From Oceanimonas aquatica (GTDB taxonomy: Bacteria > Pseudomonadota > Gammaproteobacteria > Enterobacterales > Aeromonadaceae): 64,000 bases of DNA. How positions within the stretch are numbered: the first letter of the stretch is position 1; the number at the start of each line of letters is the position of its first letter. Made by a program: the position numbers and the translations under genes. The notes under the pieces are model-generated. The model was given only the letters and a program-made list of their open reading frames with translations, was not told the DNA's origin and did not search any database. Below, in pieces: positions 5,843-12,029 of the stretch. The stretch covers positions 186,001 to 250,000 of the forward strand of contig NZ_JAVBHX010000006.1 in NCBI RefSeq assembly GCF_030732065.1. Reading direction: 5' to 3'.

Positions 5843-5868
5843 GGCAGCCCTTTCGGGCTGCCTTTTTT
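5843..5868 (+). terminator. intrinsic terminator after aceA
   Basis: Perfect 8-base arms GGCAGCCC (5843-5850) and GGGCTGCC (5855-5862) surround TTTC and are followed by six T. Confidence 0.93.
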
Positions 5869-5939
5869 CGTTTTAAGCCCGGTCCGGGCCCCTCGACTAG
5901 ACTTAGCGACGAGGTTCCAGTCTGGACTGCGAGGGCGGC

Positions 5940-7124
5940 ATGACCAATCCCAACAACGCCACCATTACCATGGTGCACCGGGTCCGGTTCGTGGACGGCC
6001 ACGGCCTGACCATTCCCACCTTTCGGCTGCTGAAGGACGACGGCCATCTTTATGCCGATGCTACCGCGCCGGAGCTCGACAAAGACCGGGCGCTGGCCAT
6101 GTATCACAGCATGGTGGCCACCCGGCTGCTGGACGAGCGCATGCTGGCGGCCCAGCGCCAGGGGCGCATCAGCTTTTATCTGCAAAGCCTGGGGGAAGAA
6201 GCCCAGGCGGTGGCCAGTGCTGCGGCACTGGCGCCCCAGGACATGATCCTGGCCCAGTACCGGGAGCAGGGGGCCCTGTTGCACCGGGGCTTTACCCTGG
6301 ATCAATTCATGAACCAGCTGTTTTCCAACGCCGACGATCTCGGCAAGGGCCGGCAGATGCCGGTGCACTACGGCTGCCGTGAACTCAACTTCATGACCAT
6401 TTCTTCCCCCCTGGCCACACAAATTCCTCAGGCCACGGGCTTTGCCTACGGCCAGCGACTGGCGGACGAGCAGAGCATTACCCTGTGTTATTTCGGCGAA
6501 GGGGCGGCCTCGGAAGGAGACTTTCACGCTGGCCTCAACATGGCGGCGGTGCTGAAAACCCCGGTGATCTTCTTTTGCCGCAACAATGGTTACGCCATTT
6601 CCACGCCGGCCAGCGAGCAGTTTGTGGGGGATGGTATTGCCAGTCGTGCCGTGGGCTATGGCATTCGCACCCTGCGGGTGGACGGGGCCGACACCCTGGC
6701 GGTGTATGAGGCCACGCGCCAGGCCCGGGAGCTGATGCTGAAAGAGCCTCAGCCGGTGTTGATTGAAGCCATGTCCTACAGGCTGGGGGCACATTCGTCG
6801 TCGGATGATCCCAGCGGCTACCGTTCGCAGCAGGAAGAAGAGCGCTGGCGCAAGCGGGATCCCATCGGCCGCTACCGGCTGTGGCTGCAACATCAGGGCT
6901 GGCTCAACGAAGAGGACGACCGCCGCCAGACGGATGCACTGCGCCGGCAAATACTGGAGGCCATGAAGCTGGCCGAGCAGCGTCCCAGACCACCTTTGGA
7001 AAGCATTATCGAAGACGTGTATGCCAGTCCGCCGGCATACCTTGAACGTCAGCTCGAGCAACTGGAGCGGCAGACAACCGTCCACCCGGAACATTATTCC
7101 GTCGGTCAGGGAGGGGGACGGTGA
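5940..7124 (+). CDS. bkdA1: branched-chain 2-oxoacid dehydrogenase E1 alpha subunit
   Basis: 394-residue thiamine-diphosphate-dependent E1 alpha. With E1 beta it decarboxylates the 2-oxoacids from valine, leucine and isoleucine and acylates the lipoyl domain of E2. The ThDP motif runs from [13 protein letters not shown] (186-198) to the NN pair at 215-216. The segment 279-296 ([17 protein letters not shown]) matches the loop that carries the regulatory serine in mammalian BCKDH; three serines (286-288) precede DD. The ATG at 5940 follows GAGGG. The stop overlaps the start of the E1 beta gene by one base, so the two are translationally coupled. First gene of a four-gene operon. Confidence 0.93.
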
Positions 7125-8101
7125 TGAAGCAGATGAACCTGTTGCAGGCGGTCAATAACGCCCTGGATCTGGCCATGGAACAAGACAAGGGGGTGCTCTG
7201 TTTTGGTGAAGACGTAGGTCACTTTGGCGGTGTATTCCGGGCCACCAGTGGCCTGCAGGACAAATACGGCGAAGACCGCTGCTTTAATACTCCGCTGACC
7301 GAGCAGGGCATTGTCGGCTTTGCCAACGGCCTGGCGGCAAAGGGGCTGAAACCGGTGGCGGAAATTCAGTTCGCCGATTACATCTTTCCTGCCTTTGATC
7401 AGCTGGTGAACGAAACCGCCAAGTTTCGCTACCGCTCCGGCAACCAGTTCAATGTGGGCGGGCTGGTGGTACGCACGCCCTACGGTGGCGGCATTGCAGG
7501 CGGCCATTACCACAGTCAGTCGCCGGAAGCCTATTTTGTGCACACGCCCGGCCTGAGGGTGGTGGTGCCGCGCGGGCCGGTGCAGGCCAAGGGGCTCTTG
7601 CTGGCGGCCATCGTCTGCCCGGATCCGGTGATTTTTTTCGAGCCCAAGCGTCTGTACCGGGCGGCGGTGGCCGAAGTGGATGAGGGCTATTATCAGCTTC
7701 CCCTGGACCAGGCCGAGGTGCTGCAGGAAGGGGCCGACATCACCTTGCTGGCTTGGGGCGCCCAGATGGATTATTTGCTGAAGGCGGCGGAGCTGGCCGA
7801 AAAACAAGGCATTTCCTGCGAGGTGATCGATCTGCAGAGCCTGTTGCCCTGGGACGAAGACACAGTGGTGGCCTCCGTGCTCAAGACCGGGCGCTTGCTT
7901 ATCAGCCACGAGGCGCCGCTCACCGGTGGCGTGGGCGCGGAGATCGCCGCCACCGTACAGGCGCGCTGTTTTCTGTATCTGGAAAGCCCCATCGCCCGGG
8001 TGTGCGGGCTCGATACGCCCTTTCCGCTGGCACTGGAAAAGGAATATATGCCCGATCAGTACAAGATTCTGGACGCCATTCACGCCACGGTGAACTTTTA
8101 G
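7124..8101 (+). CDS. bkdA2: branched-chain 2-oxoacid dehydrogenase E1 beta subunit
   Basis: 325-residue transketolase-like E1 beta partner of the preceding gene. Family features seen are [20 protein letters not shown] near the N-terminus, [37 protein letters not shown], and the C-terminal transketolase domain with the usual [18 protein letters not shown] take the ATG at 7124, whose A is the last base of the E1 alpha stop, with AGGGAGGGGG six bases upstream; a GTG at 7121 would add one residue. Ends ten bases before the E2 gene. Confidence 0.93.
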
Positions 8102-8110
8102 GAGCACGGC

Positions 8111-9361
8111 ATGAAACAGGACTTTTTTCTGCCGGATATCGGCGAAGGCATAGTGGAATGCGAGCTGGTGGAGTGGCTGGTGGCCGAGGGCGACCGGGTG
8201 GAGGAAGATCAGGCCATTTGCGATGTGATGACCGACAAGGCCCTGGTGCAGATCCCGGCGGTGCATGCCGGCATTATTACTCGGTTGCACGTGAACAAGG
8301 GCGACATGGCGAAAGTCCATGCGCCCCTGTTTGAAATGGAGCTGGCGGGCGAGGGGAGTACCGGGGCTGAAGCGCAGCCGGAGCCGAAACCAGAACCGAA
8401 ACCGGAGCCGAAACCGGAGCCGCAAGCTGGGCCGGTGAACGAGCCTTTACCCGCGCCGGCAAACGCCCCCACGGCCCGTTCCGAGCCGGCCGCGATGGCC
8501 GGTAACCGGGCCGTGGCCAGTCCGGCGGTGCGAAGGCTGGCCCGGGAGCACAATGTGGATCTGACGCAAGTGCCCGGCTCCGGCGACAAGGGCCGGGTCT
8601 ACAAGGAAGATGTGGAAGCCTGGCTGCACGCTCAGGGCACAACAGGGGGGCAGGAAAGCTCAGTCTGGCGCGAGCCGGTCACCGGCGTGCGTGCCGCCAT
8701 GGCCCGGCACATGACCGCCAGCCTCTCCATTCCCCGCTTTACCTATTGCGAGGAGTTTTGCCTCGATGAATTACTCACCCTGAAAGCCCGGCTGGCGCCC
8801 GAGTTTGAACGGGAAGGGGTAAAACTGACCCTGTTGCCGTTTTTTATCAAGGCGCTGTCACTGGCGTTGTCGGACTATCCGCTGCTGGGCGCCCGGCTCG
8901 ACGACGACGGTCAGACCCTGGTGTATGAAGACGGCCACCATGTGGGGGTGGCGGTGGATACTCAGGCCGGCCTGCTGGTACCTGTGTTGCACCATTGCGA
9001 AGACAAGTCATTGCTGAACCTGGCGCGAGAGCTCAACCGTCTGTCCGAGGCGGCCCGGGCCGGGCGGCTGACGCAAAGCGAGTTGGCCGGTGCCACCATC
9101 AGCCTGTCCAATATTGGCGTGCTGGGGGGCACCGTATCCACGCCCATCGTTAACCCGCCCCAGCTGGCCATTGCCGCCCTTGGGCGGATGCAACGCTTGC
9201 CCCGCTTCGACGAGCAGGATGCGGTGGTGGCCCGGCATATCATGACGGTGTGCTGGTCGGCGGATCACCGGGTGGTGGATGGCGCCACCCTGGCCCGCTT
9301 TAACCGTTGCTGGCAGCAGTACCTGGAGCAGCCCGAACGCATGCTGGCCCGGCTGCATTAA
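8111..9361 (+). CDS. bkdB: branched-chain 2-oxoacid dehydrogenase E2 (dihydrolipoyl acyltransferase)
   Basis: 416-residue E2 that transfers the branched acyl group from lipoate to CoA and forms the core of the complex. Domains: one lipoyl domain (about 3-77; lipoylated K43 in MTDKALVQIP), a linker with a run of PEPK units (about 92-107), a peripheral subunit-binding domain (about 136-172, ASPAVRRLAREH...GDKGRVYKEDV) and the acyltransferase domain with the catalytic HRVVDG (H386, D390). No lipoamide dehydrogenase (E3) gene follows, so E3 must be supplied from elsewhere. A protein kinase gene starts 17 bases downstream. Confidence 0.94.
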   Translation: MKQDFFLPDIGEGIVECELVEWLVAEGDRVEEDQAICDVMTDKALVQIPAVHAGIITRLHVNKGDMAKVHAPLFEMELAGEGSTGAEAQPEPKPEPKPEPKPEPQAGPVNEPLPAPANAPTARSEPAAMAGNRAVASPAVRRLAREHNVDLTQVPGSGDKGRVYKEDVEAWLHAQGTTGGQESSVWREPVTGVRAAMARHMTASLSIPRFTYCEEFCLDELLTLKARLAPEFEREGVKLTLLPFFIKALSLALSDYPLLGARLDDDGQTLVYEDGHHVGVAVDTQAGLLVPVLHHCEDKSLLNLARELNRLSEAARAGRLTQSELAGATISLSNIGVLGGTVSTPIVNPPQLAIAALGRMQRLPRFDEQDAVVARHIMTVCWSADHRVVDGATLARFNRCWQQYLEQPERMLARLH

Positions 9362-9378
9362 CTGAAGCGGAGCCGGCC

Positions 9379-11202
9379 ATGGATGCCCTGGGCAACTTTT
9401 ATATTCCCGAAGAGCAGTCCATCTACCTGCTGAGCGCCAACGACGCGCAAAAGCTGAAAGACTGGATTGCCCTGTGCATCGCCGAGCTGGAAAAGCTGGG
9501 TTACCGGAACATCAGCCTGGCGGGCAAGGGGGTGTACGGTTTTACCTTTGCCGGCACCGGTACCCATGGCGAGCAGGTGGCATTCAAGTTTTCCCGTATC
9601 GACCTGCCCGAGGCCGTGCGCGAACGACTGGCCGACGAAGCCTATATGCTGTCCTGCGTGCAGCATCCGCTGGTGCCGAAGTACCTGGCCTACGCCCTGC
9701 GCGGTCGCCAGGGCGTGTTGCTGATGAGCCGGGCGCCAGGGGAAGATCTGGAACACTACAGCCTGCGCCGGGGCCGGCTGTCGGCCCGGGAAGTCATCGA
9801 CATTGCCGCCCAGCTGGCGGACATTTTGCAGGCATTGCGCCGGCATACTCGTGACGGCGAGCCCGCGCCCGTGGTGCATGGCGATATCAAGCCTTCAAAC
9901 ATCATGTATGACACGAGCACCGGCCGCATCAGCCTGGTGGACTGGGGCTCGTCGGTGTTTGCTCAGCTGGACGCCAAGGGCCACTGGGCCGGCGCTCAGG
10001 GGCTGGCGCTGCTGTCGGGGGATTTGCAGCAGTCCAATGCCCGCATGGGGGATGTGTATTTTATCGGCCCGGAGCAGCTCGCCGGGGCCTTGTCGAGCCC
10101 CCGTTTTGATGAGCAGGGCGTGGCTGGCACCCTTTACGCTCTGGCCTCGGGCCAGGCCTGCCGCTTTGGCCGCAAGGCCGTGCCCGCCACCAGCCTGGGG
10201 CTGCCAAAAGAGTTTGCCCTGTTGCTCGATGCCCTGCTCGACGACGATCCCGAGCGTCGCCGCCGGGCCGGGGACTATTGGCTGAACGCCATGCCCCGGC
10301 TCAGGCAACTGGTACTGCCCGAGCTGCCGCTGTTTGACGACAGTCCGCAACTGCCTGTGTGGCCAAGCATTGGCGGTCGCGACATCGACACAGTGGTGTA
10401 TTCCTCGCGCAAGTCGTTTCTGCGCGAGCGCAGCGAGCGGGAAGACATTCACCAGGTGGCCGACGCCCAGCTGGAGCGTTACTACAAGCAATACCTCGAA
10501 GGCATGGGCGAAACCGAAAAGGCCTTTGTGGCCGCGGTCAGCCGGCTGGGGCGCTACCCGGTAATGGGCGGACTGGCCATTCACTGGCATGAACAGGGTG
10601 TGGACATTGACTCCAGCCTTAATCTTTACGACCGGGCGTTGTTGCCGGCCTTTGGCGTGGCGGTCAACAACGTGGTAAGCCTGGCCCGGGCCATCACCAA
10701 AACCGGGGTGTTCAAGGCCTGTCTGTTCAATGCACGCAACACCCTGCACCTGAGCCGCTGTGACGCAACACAGCCCTTTGTGCCACCACCGGGCATGGCT
10801 ATTCCCTACCGGCTGGCGGACCGGCCCGACACCGGTGCCGATCGCCAGCCTCATTCCTATTTTGAGGATGGCCGGGATCCGGACGAACAACTGGTGTTGC
10901 CCGCCGCCATTATGGAGGTGATTGCCCGGCTTAACCCGATCCACCACACCGGCTGCATTATTTTTGAAGTCACGTCCGAACATCTCAAGCTGCACAGCTA
11001 TTACCGCTTGCTGGATGCTGCGGCCGAAGCGGAGTTTGCCGCCCTGCTGGCACAGATTGTCGAGCTCATTCCGTTAATCGACGATCAGGGCGTGGGCGGC
11101 TTTATGAAACTGCCCTGCAAGAATACCCGCTTTTTTACTCACCAGCCGGTGCGGCCCGACTGCTTTTATCCCGCCAACCCCCGGGCCTGGTTATCTCAGT
11201 AA
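9379..11202 (+). CDS. eukaryotic-type (Hanks) protein kinase with uncharacterised C-terminal domain
   Basis: 607 residues from the ATG at 9379 (the frame is open further upstream inside bkdB, but this start follows GAAGCGGAG and leaves a 17-base gap). Residues about 40-310 form a protein-kinase fold: glycine loop GKGVYGFTFAGTG (49-61), the lysine in VAFK (K70), a helix-C glutamate (E87), the catalytic loop HGDIKPSN (H167, D169, K171, N174), the metal-binding D188 in DWG (DFG in most kinases) and GPEQ (230-233) in place of APE. All key catalytic residues are present, so it should be active. No transmembrane segment is seen. Residues about 330-607 match nothing I recognise. Its place behind the BCKDH genes suggests, without proof, that it acts on that complex. 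Confidence 0.8.
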   Translation: MDALGNFYIPEEQSIYLLSANDAQKLKDWIALCIAELEKLGYRNISLAGKGVYGFTFAGTGTHGEQVAFKFSRIDLPEAVRERLADEAYMLSCVQHPLVPKYLAYALRGRQGVLLMSRAPGEDLEHYSLRRGRLSAREVIDIAAQLADILQALRRHTRDGEPAPVVHGDIKPSNIMYDTSTGRISLVDWGSSVFAQLDAKGHWAGAQGLALLSGDLQQSNARMGDVYFIGPEQLAGALSSPRFDEQGVAGTLYALASGQACRFGRKAVPATSLGLPKEFALLLDALLDDDPERRRRAGDYWLNAMPRLRQLVLPELPLFDDSPQLPVWPSIGGRDIDTVVYSSRKSFLRERSEREDIHQVADAQLERYYKQYLEGMGETEKAFVAAVSRLGRYPVMGGLAIHWHEQGVDIDSSLNLYDRALLPAFGVAVNNVVSLARAITKTGVFKACLFNARNTLHLSRCDATQPFVPPPGMAIPYRLADRPDTGADRQPHSYFEDGRDPDEQLVLPAAIMEVIARLNPIHHTGCIIFEVTSEHLKLHSYYRLLDAAAEAEFAALLAQIVELIPLIDDQGVGGFMKLPCKNTRFFTHQPVRPDCFYPANPRAWLSQ

Positions 11203-11420: not shown

Positions 11421-12029
11421 TTAACGGCGTGTCGGCCGAGTGGTTTCTTTGACCAACTCGGCTTCGTTCAGCACAAACTTTTCCAGCTCGGGGTAGAAGC
11501 CGAGAAAGGCGGTTTCCATATCGTGGTAGTACTGCTCCAGCAGGGAACGGCAGTAAGGCAGGGGCGTGGGGCACTTAAAGCGCCGGTCAATACGGGACAG
11601 CGCGGTGATAATGCCGTCGAATTCCCGGTAGTGCAGCAGCAGCCTGTTTTGCTTCATGCGGGACACCAGCAACACCATGGCCTCGGGCCAGTGCCGGTCG
11701 GGCTGCAATTCGGCATGGGCCTGTTGCACAAATGCCTCTAGGGGCTGAGCATGAAAACGTGGCCAGTGCCGGGCCAGAAAGTGATCGAACATCATGTCGG
11801 TGATAATGCCGCCAAAGCGGCGAAACGGCGAGGGCAGAGCGCGTACTCTGCCCGCGTGCAATGGATGGGCGTCGGTGAAGCTGTCGATGCGCCGGTGCAG
11901 CAGTATGCCGGTTTGCAGGGCCACCGGCAGGGCAGGATTCAACGCGCCCCGGGCATATTCCCCCAGCAGGGCGCCGGCCAGGCTGGTGTGGCTGAGGTCG
12001 GCCAGATGCAGGTGGGCCAGGTAATTCAT
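11421..12029 (-). CDS. acpH: acyl carrier protein phosphodiesterase
   Basis: 202-residue AcpH (YajB) family hydrolase that removes the 4'-phosphopantetheine arm from holo-ACP. MNYLAHLHLA at the N-terminus, HRRIDSFTDAHP and GGIITDMMFDHFLARHW in the middle are characteristic of this HD-like family; the conserved H and D residues are present. Length is usual (193 in E. coli). In E. coli acpH also lies divergently beside queA, which supports the call. Its ATG directly abuts the stop of the CBS-protein gene, so the two are probably translated from one message. Confidence 0.93.
   Translation of the reverse strand: MNYLAHLHLADLSHTSLAGALLGEYARGALNPALPVALQTGILLHRRIDSFTDAHPLHAGRVRALPSPFRRFGGIITDMMFDHFLARHWPRFHAQPLEAFVQQAHAELQPDRHWPEAMVLLVSRMKQNRLLLHYREFDGIITALSRIDRRFKCPTPLPYCRSLLEQYYHDMETAFLGFYPELEKFVLNEAELVKETTRPTRR

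What the first reader, a model, noticed from the sequence alone, without database searches (positions are those of the whole stretch)
5940..11202. A Hanks-type kinase closes the BCKDH operon, and E1 alpha keeps the mammalian phosphorylation loop
The E1alpha, E1beta and E2 genes are followed after 17 bases by a kinase gene whose catalytic residues (K70, E87, D169, N174, D188) are all present. E1 alpha residues 279-296 ([17 protein letters not shown]) closely match the loop whose serine is phosphorylated by the mammalian BCKDH kinase. That kinase is of the GHKL type, unrelated to the Hanks fold seen here. A bacterial complex controlled by an independently evolved kinase would be new to me. The loop is widely conserved in E1 alpha proteins for catalytic reasons, so its presence alone proves nothing.
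Basis: partly seen in the sequence, partly recalled or inferred. Interest (0 to 1): 0.75.

Follow-up and report, generated by a model that had tools for sequence, protein, structure and literature searches.

The report
Bacterial kinase tied to BCKDH complex
Some bacteria carry a human-like enzyme complex for breaking down branched-chain amino acids together with a protein kinase of a quite different type from the human one, and in the genomes sampled the kinase is found almost only where that complex is found, which suggests that control of this enzyme by phosphorylation may have evolved twice.

Summary
In detail: E1alpha, E1beta, E2 and a 607-aa Hanks-type kinase form one cluster (5940-11202), 17 bases between E2 and kinase; the catalytic residues are invariant in 67 aligned kinases. 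In 295 genomes of the order, 57 carry the kinase, 57 this human-like E1alpha, 56 both. In 101 near-complete genomes of family f7: 82 both, 10 E1alpha only, 9 neither, 0 kinase only. This holds where the loci are far apart (Shewanella family, f17). Both are missing together in part of four genera. The serine loop itself proves nothing; it is conserved in kinase-less enzymes. Leu282, four residues before the serine matching human site 1, is invariant in 117 E1alpha rows from kinase-bearing genomes and is the one near-invariant E1alpha column changed in both clear lineages that keep BCKDH without the kinase; statistically this is weak, and three doubtful kinase-less rows keep Leu. The C-terminal domain has no known fold. 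Most likely this is a dedicated BCKDH kinase acting on the E1alpha loop: link strong, substrate unproven. Ten searches of an open-paper library showed no report of it.

The parts
5940..7124 (+). BCKDH E1 alpha (mitochondrial-like type)
   Evidence: PF00676 E 4e-96; best solved relative 1dtw BCKDH E1alpha, 417 bits, against 225 bits for 1qs0 (that these are human and Pseudomonas is recalled)
6777..6827 (+). codons 280-296 of E1alpha: loop [17 protein letters not shown]; Leu282 = 6783-6785; S286 = 6795-6797 (human site 1); S296 = 6825-6827 (human site 2)
   Evidence: alignment to 1dtw and to chains with N, D or E at the site-1 serine; conservation
7121..8101 (+). BCKDH E1 beta
   Evidence: PF02779 and PF02780; nearest solved chain 1dtw BCKDH E1beta, 440 bits
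8111..9361 (+). BCKDH E2 (one lipoyl, one E3-binding, one catalytic domain)
   Evidence: PF00364, PF02817, PF00198
9379..11202 (+). Hanks-type Ser/Thr kinase with novel C-terminal domain; proposed BCKDH kinase
   Evidence: PF00069 E 9e-18; Foldseek best PknA E 6e-12; catalytic residues invariant in 67 aligned kinases, window included
10306..11199 (+). C-terminal domain, residues 310-607, two similar alpha/beta halves; conserved H492-S-Y-F-E-D-x-x-D-P-D-E503 motif
   Evidence: AlphaFold mean pLDDT 79, pTM 0.77; no PDB fold match at E<=0.001, no sequence match up to E 10, no Pfam; motif 67 of 67
5843..5870 (+). terminator-like hairpin and T run after isocitrate lyase, in front of the bkd cluster
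   Evidence: sequence; the scan as a whole is not above its shuffles

Best explanation
The gene at 9379-11202 encodes a cytoplasmic Hanks-type Ser/Thr kinase dedicated to a mitochondrial-like branched-chain 2-oxoacid dehydrogenase (BCKDH) made by the three genes in front of it. Most likely it phosphorylates the serine loop of E1alpha (S286, perhaps also S296) and thereby turns the complex down, as the unrelated GHKL kinase does in mitochondria. Its C-terminal domain would dock on the complex or sense a metabolite. Shown: the cluster, the intact catalytic site, the dependence of kinase presence on BCKDH presence in the genomes sampled, and similar inheritance. Inferred: E1alpha as substrate, the loop as site, inhibition as outcome, the role of the C-terminal domain. 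A counteracting phosphatase is unknown. My step-wise estimates: dedicated to BCKDH 0.9; active kinase 0.85; E1alpha loop as substrate 0.5; inhibitory 0.45.
For: Order, 295 genomes: both 56, kinase only 1 (G166, which has E1beta next to an E1alpha fragment at a contig edge), E1alpha only 1 (G230, 80% complete), neither 237. Family f7, 101 near-complete genomes: both 82, E1alpha only 10, neither 9, kinase only 0 (tallies; test, which ignores relatedness). Class sample of 369: the 5 genomes with tight E1alpha are the 5 with full-length kinase. Phylum sample of 219: 10 with tight E1alpha; the 4 not tested before all have the kinase. Both absent together in part of genera g1 (4 of 23), g402 (1 of 2), g382 (1 of 2) and g90 (1 of 3), whose other members have both; no E1beta at E<=1e-20 in those 7 either. 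Co-occurrence persists where unlinked (f6, f17). Linked also in f192, f196 and f208. Kinase and E1alpha of the window's genus each fall in one clade with Rheinheimera, Arsukibacterium and Alkalimonas (SH-aLRT 99-100, quick trees), while 52 genomes of the four other genera of its family lack the kinase save weak partial hits in 2. Catalytic residues invariant, 67 of 67. Leu282: L in 117 of 117 kinase-bearing rows, M in 8 of 8 and V in 1 of 1 of the rows of two clear kinase-less lineages; it is the only near-invariant E1alpha column (of 114) changed in either. It is A, V, M or K in 10 of 10 other bacterial E1alphas.
Against: No biochemical data. S286 is also conserved in kinase-less E1alphas (9 of 9 of the same clade, 9 of 10 others with Thr in one). 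Three further rows from genomes without a detected kinase (G768, G796, G821, set apart as doubtful) keep Leu282; G796 is 93% complete. The Leu282 coincidence is weak once all three subunits are counted: chance of at least one shared column about 0.065, and 0.15 such columns expected from the number of two-change columns. E1beta shows more lineage-specific changes than E1alpha in the kinase-less rows (3 and 4, none shared). Loop-wide enrichment of changes on kinase-less branches is marginal (p 0.013 for 276-306, 0.069 for 280-296), and other stretches score as well in the sliding scan (best at 189, p 0.006). No phosphatase among 10 neighbouring proteins from 8 loci. In f6 and f17 the kinase is unlinked. 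Ten near-complete f7 genomes show BCKDH without the kinase. Kinase without detected BCKDH in G792 (84% complete), G807 (85%) and the MAG G719, and as a contig-edge tail in G705. Genera g375, g393 and g397 are discordant, each through genomes that are incomplete or at the contamination limit.
Confidence: 0.55

Rival explanations
1. The kinase is dedicated to BCKDH physiology but its substrate is another protein: E1beta, E2 or its lipoyl domain, a transcription factor of branched-chain catabolism, or a neighbour such as the AAA ATPase or TesB.
For: Co-occurrence only ties it to the complex, not to the loop. E1beta shows changes specific to each kinase-less lineage. AAA ATPase, RlmJ, TesB or fRMsr sit beside it in several loci.
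Against: Neighbour genes vary from lineage to lineage and are not beside the kinase in the window. No E1beta or E2 near-invariant column changes in both kinase-less lineages, while E1alpha Leu282 does.
Confidence: 0.3
2. The kinase acts positively: it helps assembly or activity of the complex, or relieves an inhibitor, as PknG does through OdhI for 2-oxoglutarate dehydrogenase.
For: A precedent of a bacterial Ser/Thr kinase controlling a 2-oxoacid dehydrogenase exists (PMC9769921, abstract and outline read).
Against: No FHA-domain (OdhI/GarA-like) protein among the 10 flanking proteins scanned. Ten near-complete genomes show BCKDH without the kinase, so it is not strictly required there.
Confidence: 0.12
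3. The association is historical only: bkd and the kinase were neighbours in an ancestor and travelled together, without a functional link.
For: One ancestral cluster explains much of the linkage; the window's genus is placed alike in the E1alpha and kinase trees.
Against: In f6 (21 of 21) and f17 (7 of 7) the genes are unlinked, yet co-occur. Both are absent together in part of four genera, and no kinase-only genome was seen among 101 near-complete f7 genomes.
Confidence: 0.07

Closest known systems
Mammalian BCKDH kinase (BDK/BCKDK) acting on E1alpha
   Same: Target complex of the same type: E1alpha and E1beta of the window are nearest to 1dtw (human BCKDH, species recalled) among solved structures, and the loop keeps both serines that match human sites 1 and 2 (site numbers recalled).
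   Different: BDK is of the GHKL fold (recalled); [quoted passage not shown] The kinase here is Hanks-type with an unrelated C-terminal domain. BDK binds the E2 lipoyl domain, which brings E1 near (PMC10412597, passages read); docking here is unknown.
Corynebacterium PknG-OdhI control of 2-oxoglutarate dehydrogenase
   Same: A bacterial Ser/Thr kinase controls a 2-oxoacid dehydrogenase (PMC9769921, abstract and outline read).
   Different: PknG acts through the inhibitor OdhI and on 2-oxoglutarate dehydrogenase. Here no FHA protein was found among the flanks scanned, and the complex is BCKDH.
AceK isocitrate dehydrogenase kinase/phosphatase (recalled)
   Same: Kinase gene at the end of the operon of the pathway that it controls.
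   Different: AceK is bifunctional and acts on isocitrate dehydrogenase (recalled); it did not appear in the Pfam or NCBIfam hits of this kinase.
PknA/PknB-type bacterial Ser/Thr kinases
   Same: Catalytic domain: PknA is the best sequence and fold match among solved structures.
   Different: Most of those are membrane receptors (recalled); here no stretch typical of a membrane helix is seen (maximum 19-residue Kyte-Doolittle mean 1.53) and the C-terminal domain is different.

Membership tests
Hanks-type protein kinase | PF00069 domain over its curated cut-off | tested here: met
   65.1 bits against 31.7
Hanks-type protein kinase | Gly loop, VAIK Lys, alphaC Glu, HxD Asp, Asn, DFG Asp, APE-like Glu | tested here: met
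   G49, G51, G54, K70, E87, D169, N174 and D188 are 67 of 67; the catalytic loop is HGD (non-RD) and DFG is DWG; E232 61 of 67, Asp in 6
Hanks-type protein kinase | bilobal kinase fold | tested here: met
   Foldseek: PknA E 5.6e-12, TM 0.70 by target length; the activation segment is poorly modelled
Hanks-type protein kinase | phosphotransfer activity on protein | not testable with these tools
   needs biochemistry
BCKDK/PDK family of GHKL mitochondrial kinases | BCDHK_Adom3 and HATPase_c domains (names recalled) | tested here: not met
   Pfam scan of the kinase lists neither at E up to 0.1
BCKDH kinase by function | phosphorylates E1alpha loop serine and inhibits the complex | not testable with these tools
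   only genomic association and Leu282
BCKDH | E1alpha/E1beta/E2 set nearest to characterised BCKDH | tested here: met
   1dtw BCKDH E1alpha 417 bits and E1beta 440 bits, best of all solved chains. E2 alone does not decide: PDH E2 chains rank first to third (258.8, 257.7, 236.3 bits) and the BCKDH E2 chain 2ihw fourth (231.8). NCBIfam E1alpha models stay under their cut-offs. Enzyme activity is not tested.
PknG-OdhI module | FHA inhibitor protein next to the kinase | tested here: inconclusive
   10 flanking proteins from 8 loci scanned, none FHA, one without any family; a protein encoded elsewhere is not excluded

The most novel reading that the evidence does not exclude
A Hanks-type kinase evolved independently in Gammaproteobacteria to recognise the same E1alpha loop that the GHKL kinase BDK recognises in mitochondria, reading Leu at -4 of the site-1 serine, with a new docking or sensor domain. 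Control of BCKDH by loop phosphorylation would then have arisen twice, on closely related E1 enzymes.
Probability: 0.45. Interest if true: 0.85.

Novelty: new variant of a known kind. Interest (0 to 1): 0.72.

Why it matters
If true, bacteria control branched-chain amino acid breakdown by direct phosphorylation of E1, as animals do, but with a kinase of another fold: a clear case of convergent evolution of metabolic control on nearly the same substrate. It gives a function to a conserved kinase of unknown role in Shewanella, Rheinheimera, Oceanimonas and many relatives, some of which are easy to grow and to mutate, and it brings in a C-terminal domain with no known fold. Lineages that have BCKDH but no kinase offer a natural control.

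Tried and rejected
Serine conservation in the loop as evidence for phosphorylation: rejected. S286 is Ser in 117 of 117 kinase-bearing rows, in 9 of 9 kinase-less rows of the same clade and in 9 of 10 other bacterial E1alphas (Thr in one); S288, D289 and D290 are conserved in all of these.

A loop-wide signal of relaxed constraint without the kinase: only marginal, and not the best stretch of the protein. Site 2 (S296) as a marker: S in 99, T in 17 and E in 1 of 117 kinase-bearing rows, T in 8 and S in 1 of 9 kinase-less rows, while 10 of 10 other bacterial E1alphas have P, A or D; so S/T there marks the E1alpha clade, not the kinase.

A dedicated phosphatase next to the kinase: not among 10 neighbours from 8 loci; the rest of the genomes was not searched for one. 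A known fold for the C-terminal domain: none at E<=0.001 in Foldseek PDB, none by profile up to E 10. A shared regulatory site of E1alpha and unlinked kinases: only a quick look at upstream sequences, inconclusive.

Literature: ten searches ran; one search was for the PknG precedent, and one search used guessed Shewanella locus tags. None of the listings showed a report of a Hanks-type BCKDH kinase in bacteria; the listings were capped, and I read only titles and abstract starts there. Passages were read in PMC3219624, PMC1262709, PMC3223726 and PMC10412597; in PMC9007349 four terms were sought and none occurs; of PMC9769921 I saw the abstract and outline. Subscription journals and mutant-fitness databases are outside this library, so prior knowledge there is not excluded.

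Rows left out or set apart: the kinase-negative genomes G768 (85% complete), G796 (93% complete, 800 contigs, contamination 5) and G821 (80%) were kept apart as doubtful; G796 does count among the 10 E1alpha-only near-complete genomes of the tool's tally. The 117 kinase-bearing rows include a duplicate of the window's own E1alpha (L138). A1 holds 67 of the kinases fetched, not all of them. E1beta and E2 comparisons used 76 and 85 kinase-bearing rows.
Full report
What is there. The window (G000:C21:186001-250000 of a 3.45 Mb genome) carries E1alpha 5940-7124, E1beta 7121-8101, E2 8111-9361 and, 17 bases on, a kinase gene 9379-11202. A good hairpin with a T run follows the isocitrate lyase gene in front, and the next likely gene after the kinase runs the other way (open frame 11421-12029). 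The nearest named kinase is from Oceanimonas marisflavi (91%), so the window is probably from an Oceanimonas species (inference). They are invariant in 67 aligned kinases (window included), with a non-RD HGD catalytic loop, a DWG motif and a long poorly modelled activation segment. Pfam, sequence and fold searches place residues 43-260 with Hanks-type kinases, PknA first among solved structures. Residues 310-607 form a well-conserved alpha/beta domain that matches nothing in Pfam or the PDB at the thresholds used and holds a conserved acidic motif, H492 to E503.

What kind of BCKDH. E1alpha and E1beta are closer to the BCKDH subunits of 1dtw (417 and 440 bits) than to those of 1um9 (247, 350) or 1qs0 (225, 333); that these are human, Thermus and Pseudomonas proteins is recalled. 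The E2 core ranks PDH E2 chains first to third (258.8, 257.7 and 236.3 bits) and the BCKDH E2 chain 2ihw fourth (231.8). The alignment puts S286 on the serine that is N, D or E in the chains of 1x7y, 1x7z and 1x7x, which I take to be site-1 mutants, and S296 on the second serine (site names recalled).

Does the kinase belong to BCKDH? In 295 genomes of the order, 57 hold the kinase and 57 this type of E1alpha, 56 of them both. The one kinase-only genome (G166) has E1beta and an edge fragment of E1alpha; the one E1alpha-only genome (G230) is 80% complete. In a class sample of 369, the 5 with tight E1alpha are the 5 with full-length kinase, and the other E1alphas listed are at most 44% identical. 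In a phylum sample of 219, 10 had tight E1alpha, all of the window's class; 4 of these, in families f196 and f208, had not been tested before and all 4 have the kinase. In family f7, 108 genomes: both 84, kinase only 2 (84% and 85% complete), E1alpha only 12, neither 10. Among its 101 near-complete genomes the counts are 82, 0, 10 and 9 (Fisher p 4e-8, which ignores relatedness). Relatedness is handled better by contrasts inside genera: g1 (19 both, 4 neither), g402 (1 and 1), g382 (1 and 1) and g90 (2 and 1) lack both together in some members, and no E1beta at E<=1e-20 is found in those 7 genomes. The 4 genomes of g1 may be one event. Genera g375, g393 and g397 are discordant, each through genomes that are incomplete or at the contamination limit. 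Kinase without BCKDH was seen in G792, G807, the MAG G719 and, as a tail at a contig end, G705; G718 looked like a case but has an E1beta fragment at a contig edge.

Neighbourhood. E2 lies directly in front of the kinase in 19 of 19 g1 genomes with the kinase. Of 94 further kinase/E1alpha pairs (87 from f7, the rest from f21, f192, f196 and f208), 70 lie within 10 kb, 6 at 10-50 kb, 9 farther on the same contig and 9 on other contigs. In f6 21 of 21 and in f17 7 of 7 kinase-bearing genomes of the order sample have them far apart or on other contigs (places). f6 holds Shewanella: the E1alpha place of G235 (f6) is that of the genome of L116, Shewanella salipaludis. Three Alishewanella loci with 9 kb in front show the kinase at an fRMsr-proQ-prc type of place without bkd, but 5 of 5 Alishewanella genomes have the E1alpha elsewhere. 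The genes between E2 and kinase, or after the kinase, change (AAA ATPase, RlmJ, TesB, fRMsr, glyoxalase). So linkage alone would be a mixed result, but co-occurrence holds with and without linkage. In both trees the window's genus falls in one clade with Rheinheimera, Arsukibacterium and Alkalimonas (quick trees, with long-branch warnings for other rows), as expected if both genes moved or stayed together.

Is the E1alpha loop the target? The loop serines are conserved almost everywhere, also in kinase-less E1alphas, so they say nothing. Clear kinase-less E1alphas fall in two lineages: eight rows from three genera with genomes of 2.4-2.9 Mb, and L155. Among 114 near-invariant E1alpha columns of 117 kinase-bearing rows, one is changed in the eight-row clade and one in L155, and it is the same column: Leu282 (to Met; to Val), four residues before S286. 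Other bacterial E1alphas have A, V, M or K there (10 of 10); 1dtw has Ile. On the tree it is the only column with two or more changes that all lie on kinase-less branches. The cautions are real: three doubtful kinase-less rows keep Leu; 0.15 such columns are expected by chance; counting E1beta and E2 too, the chance of one shared column is 0.065; E1beta has its own unshared changes. I treat this as a hint that the kinase reads the loop, not as proof.

Mechanism proposed. Kinase docks on the complex (through its C-terminal domain, inferred), phosphorylates S286 and perhaps S296, the loop loses its catalytic shape, and flux from branched-chain 2-oxoacids to acyl-CoA falls (by analogy with the mitochondrial enzyme, recalled). 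That ten near-complete genomes show BCKDH without the kinase fits a regulator that can be dispensed with; that none of 101 shows the kinase without BCKDH fits a dedicated one. A phosphatase remains to be found.

Comparison and novelty. The mammalian kinase is of another fold; PknG acts on another complex and through an inhibitor protein (PMC9769921, abstract). A paper on transcriptional control in Shewanella places bkd under LiuR and TyrR, and the term 'protein kinase' does not occur in it (PMC3223726, passages). My literature searches showed no prior report, within the limits told under Tried and rejected. I rate it a new variant of a known kind: an analogous, not homologous, BCKDH kinase.

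Noticed in passing
window 5940-8101: E1alpha and E1beta are closer to the 1dtw (human, recalled) BCKDH than to the 1qs0 or 1um9 enzymes, and this type appeared in only a few families of the window's class in the samples searched; its origin (shared ancestry or transfer with the mitochondrial enzyme) is open.
   Followed up: partly
window 10306-11199: Kinase C-terminal domain without known fold, two similar alpha/beta halves and a conserved acidic motif HSYFED..DPDE; could be a docking, sensor or enzymatic domain.
   Followed up: partly
L061:7501-8985: An AAA ATPase gene sits between E2 and the kinase in a Rheinheimera locus (L061), and a similar gene in an Alkalimonas locus (L074:7416-8972).
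   Followed up: no
L113, L121, L124, L126 upstream of the kinase (about 8780-8870): Several Shewanella-named kinase genes have a TTGATATAGGTCAA-like palindrome upstream, resembling an FNR-type site (recalled); not tested.
   Followed up: no
L019 / L022 (G053): In one relative the kinase is broken into two overlapping frames (residues 4-453 and 450-603), while an E1alpha of normal length is found beside it.
   Followed up: no
G000:C20:195016-195880: Another PF00069 kinase of the window's genome appears in two pieces, one of them with stops in frame.
   Followed up: no
E1alpha residue 296, 117 kinase-bearing rows: One row has Glu at the position of human site 2, a possible fixed phosphate mimic.
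   Followed up: no
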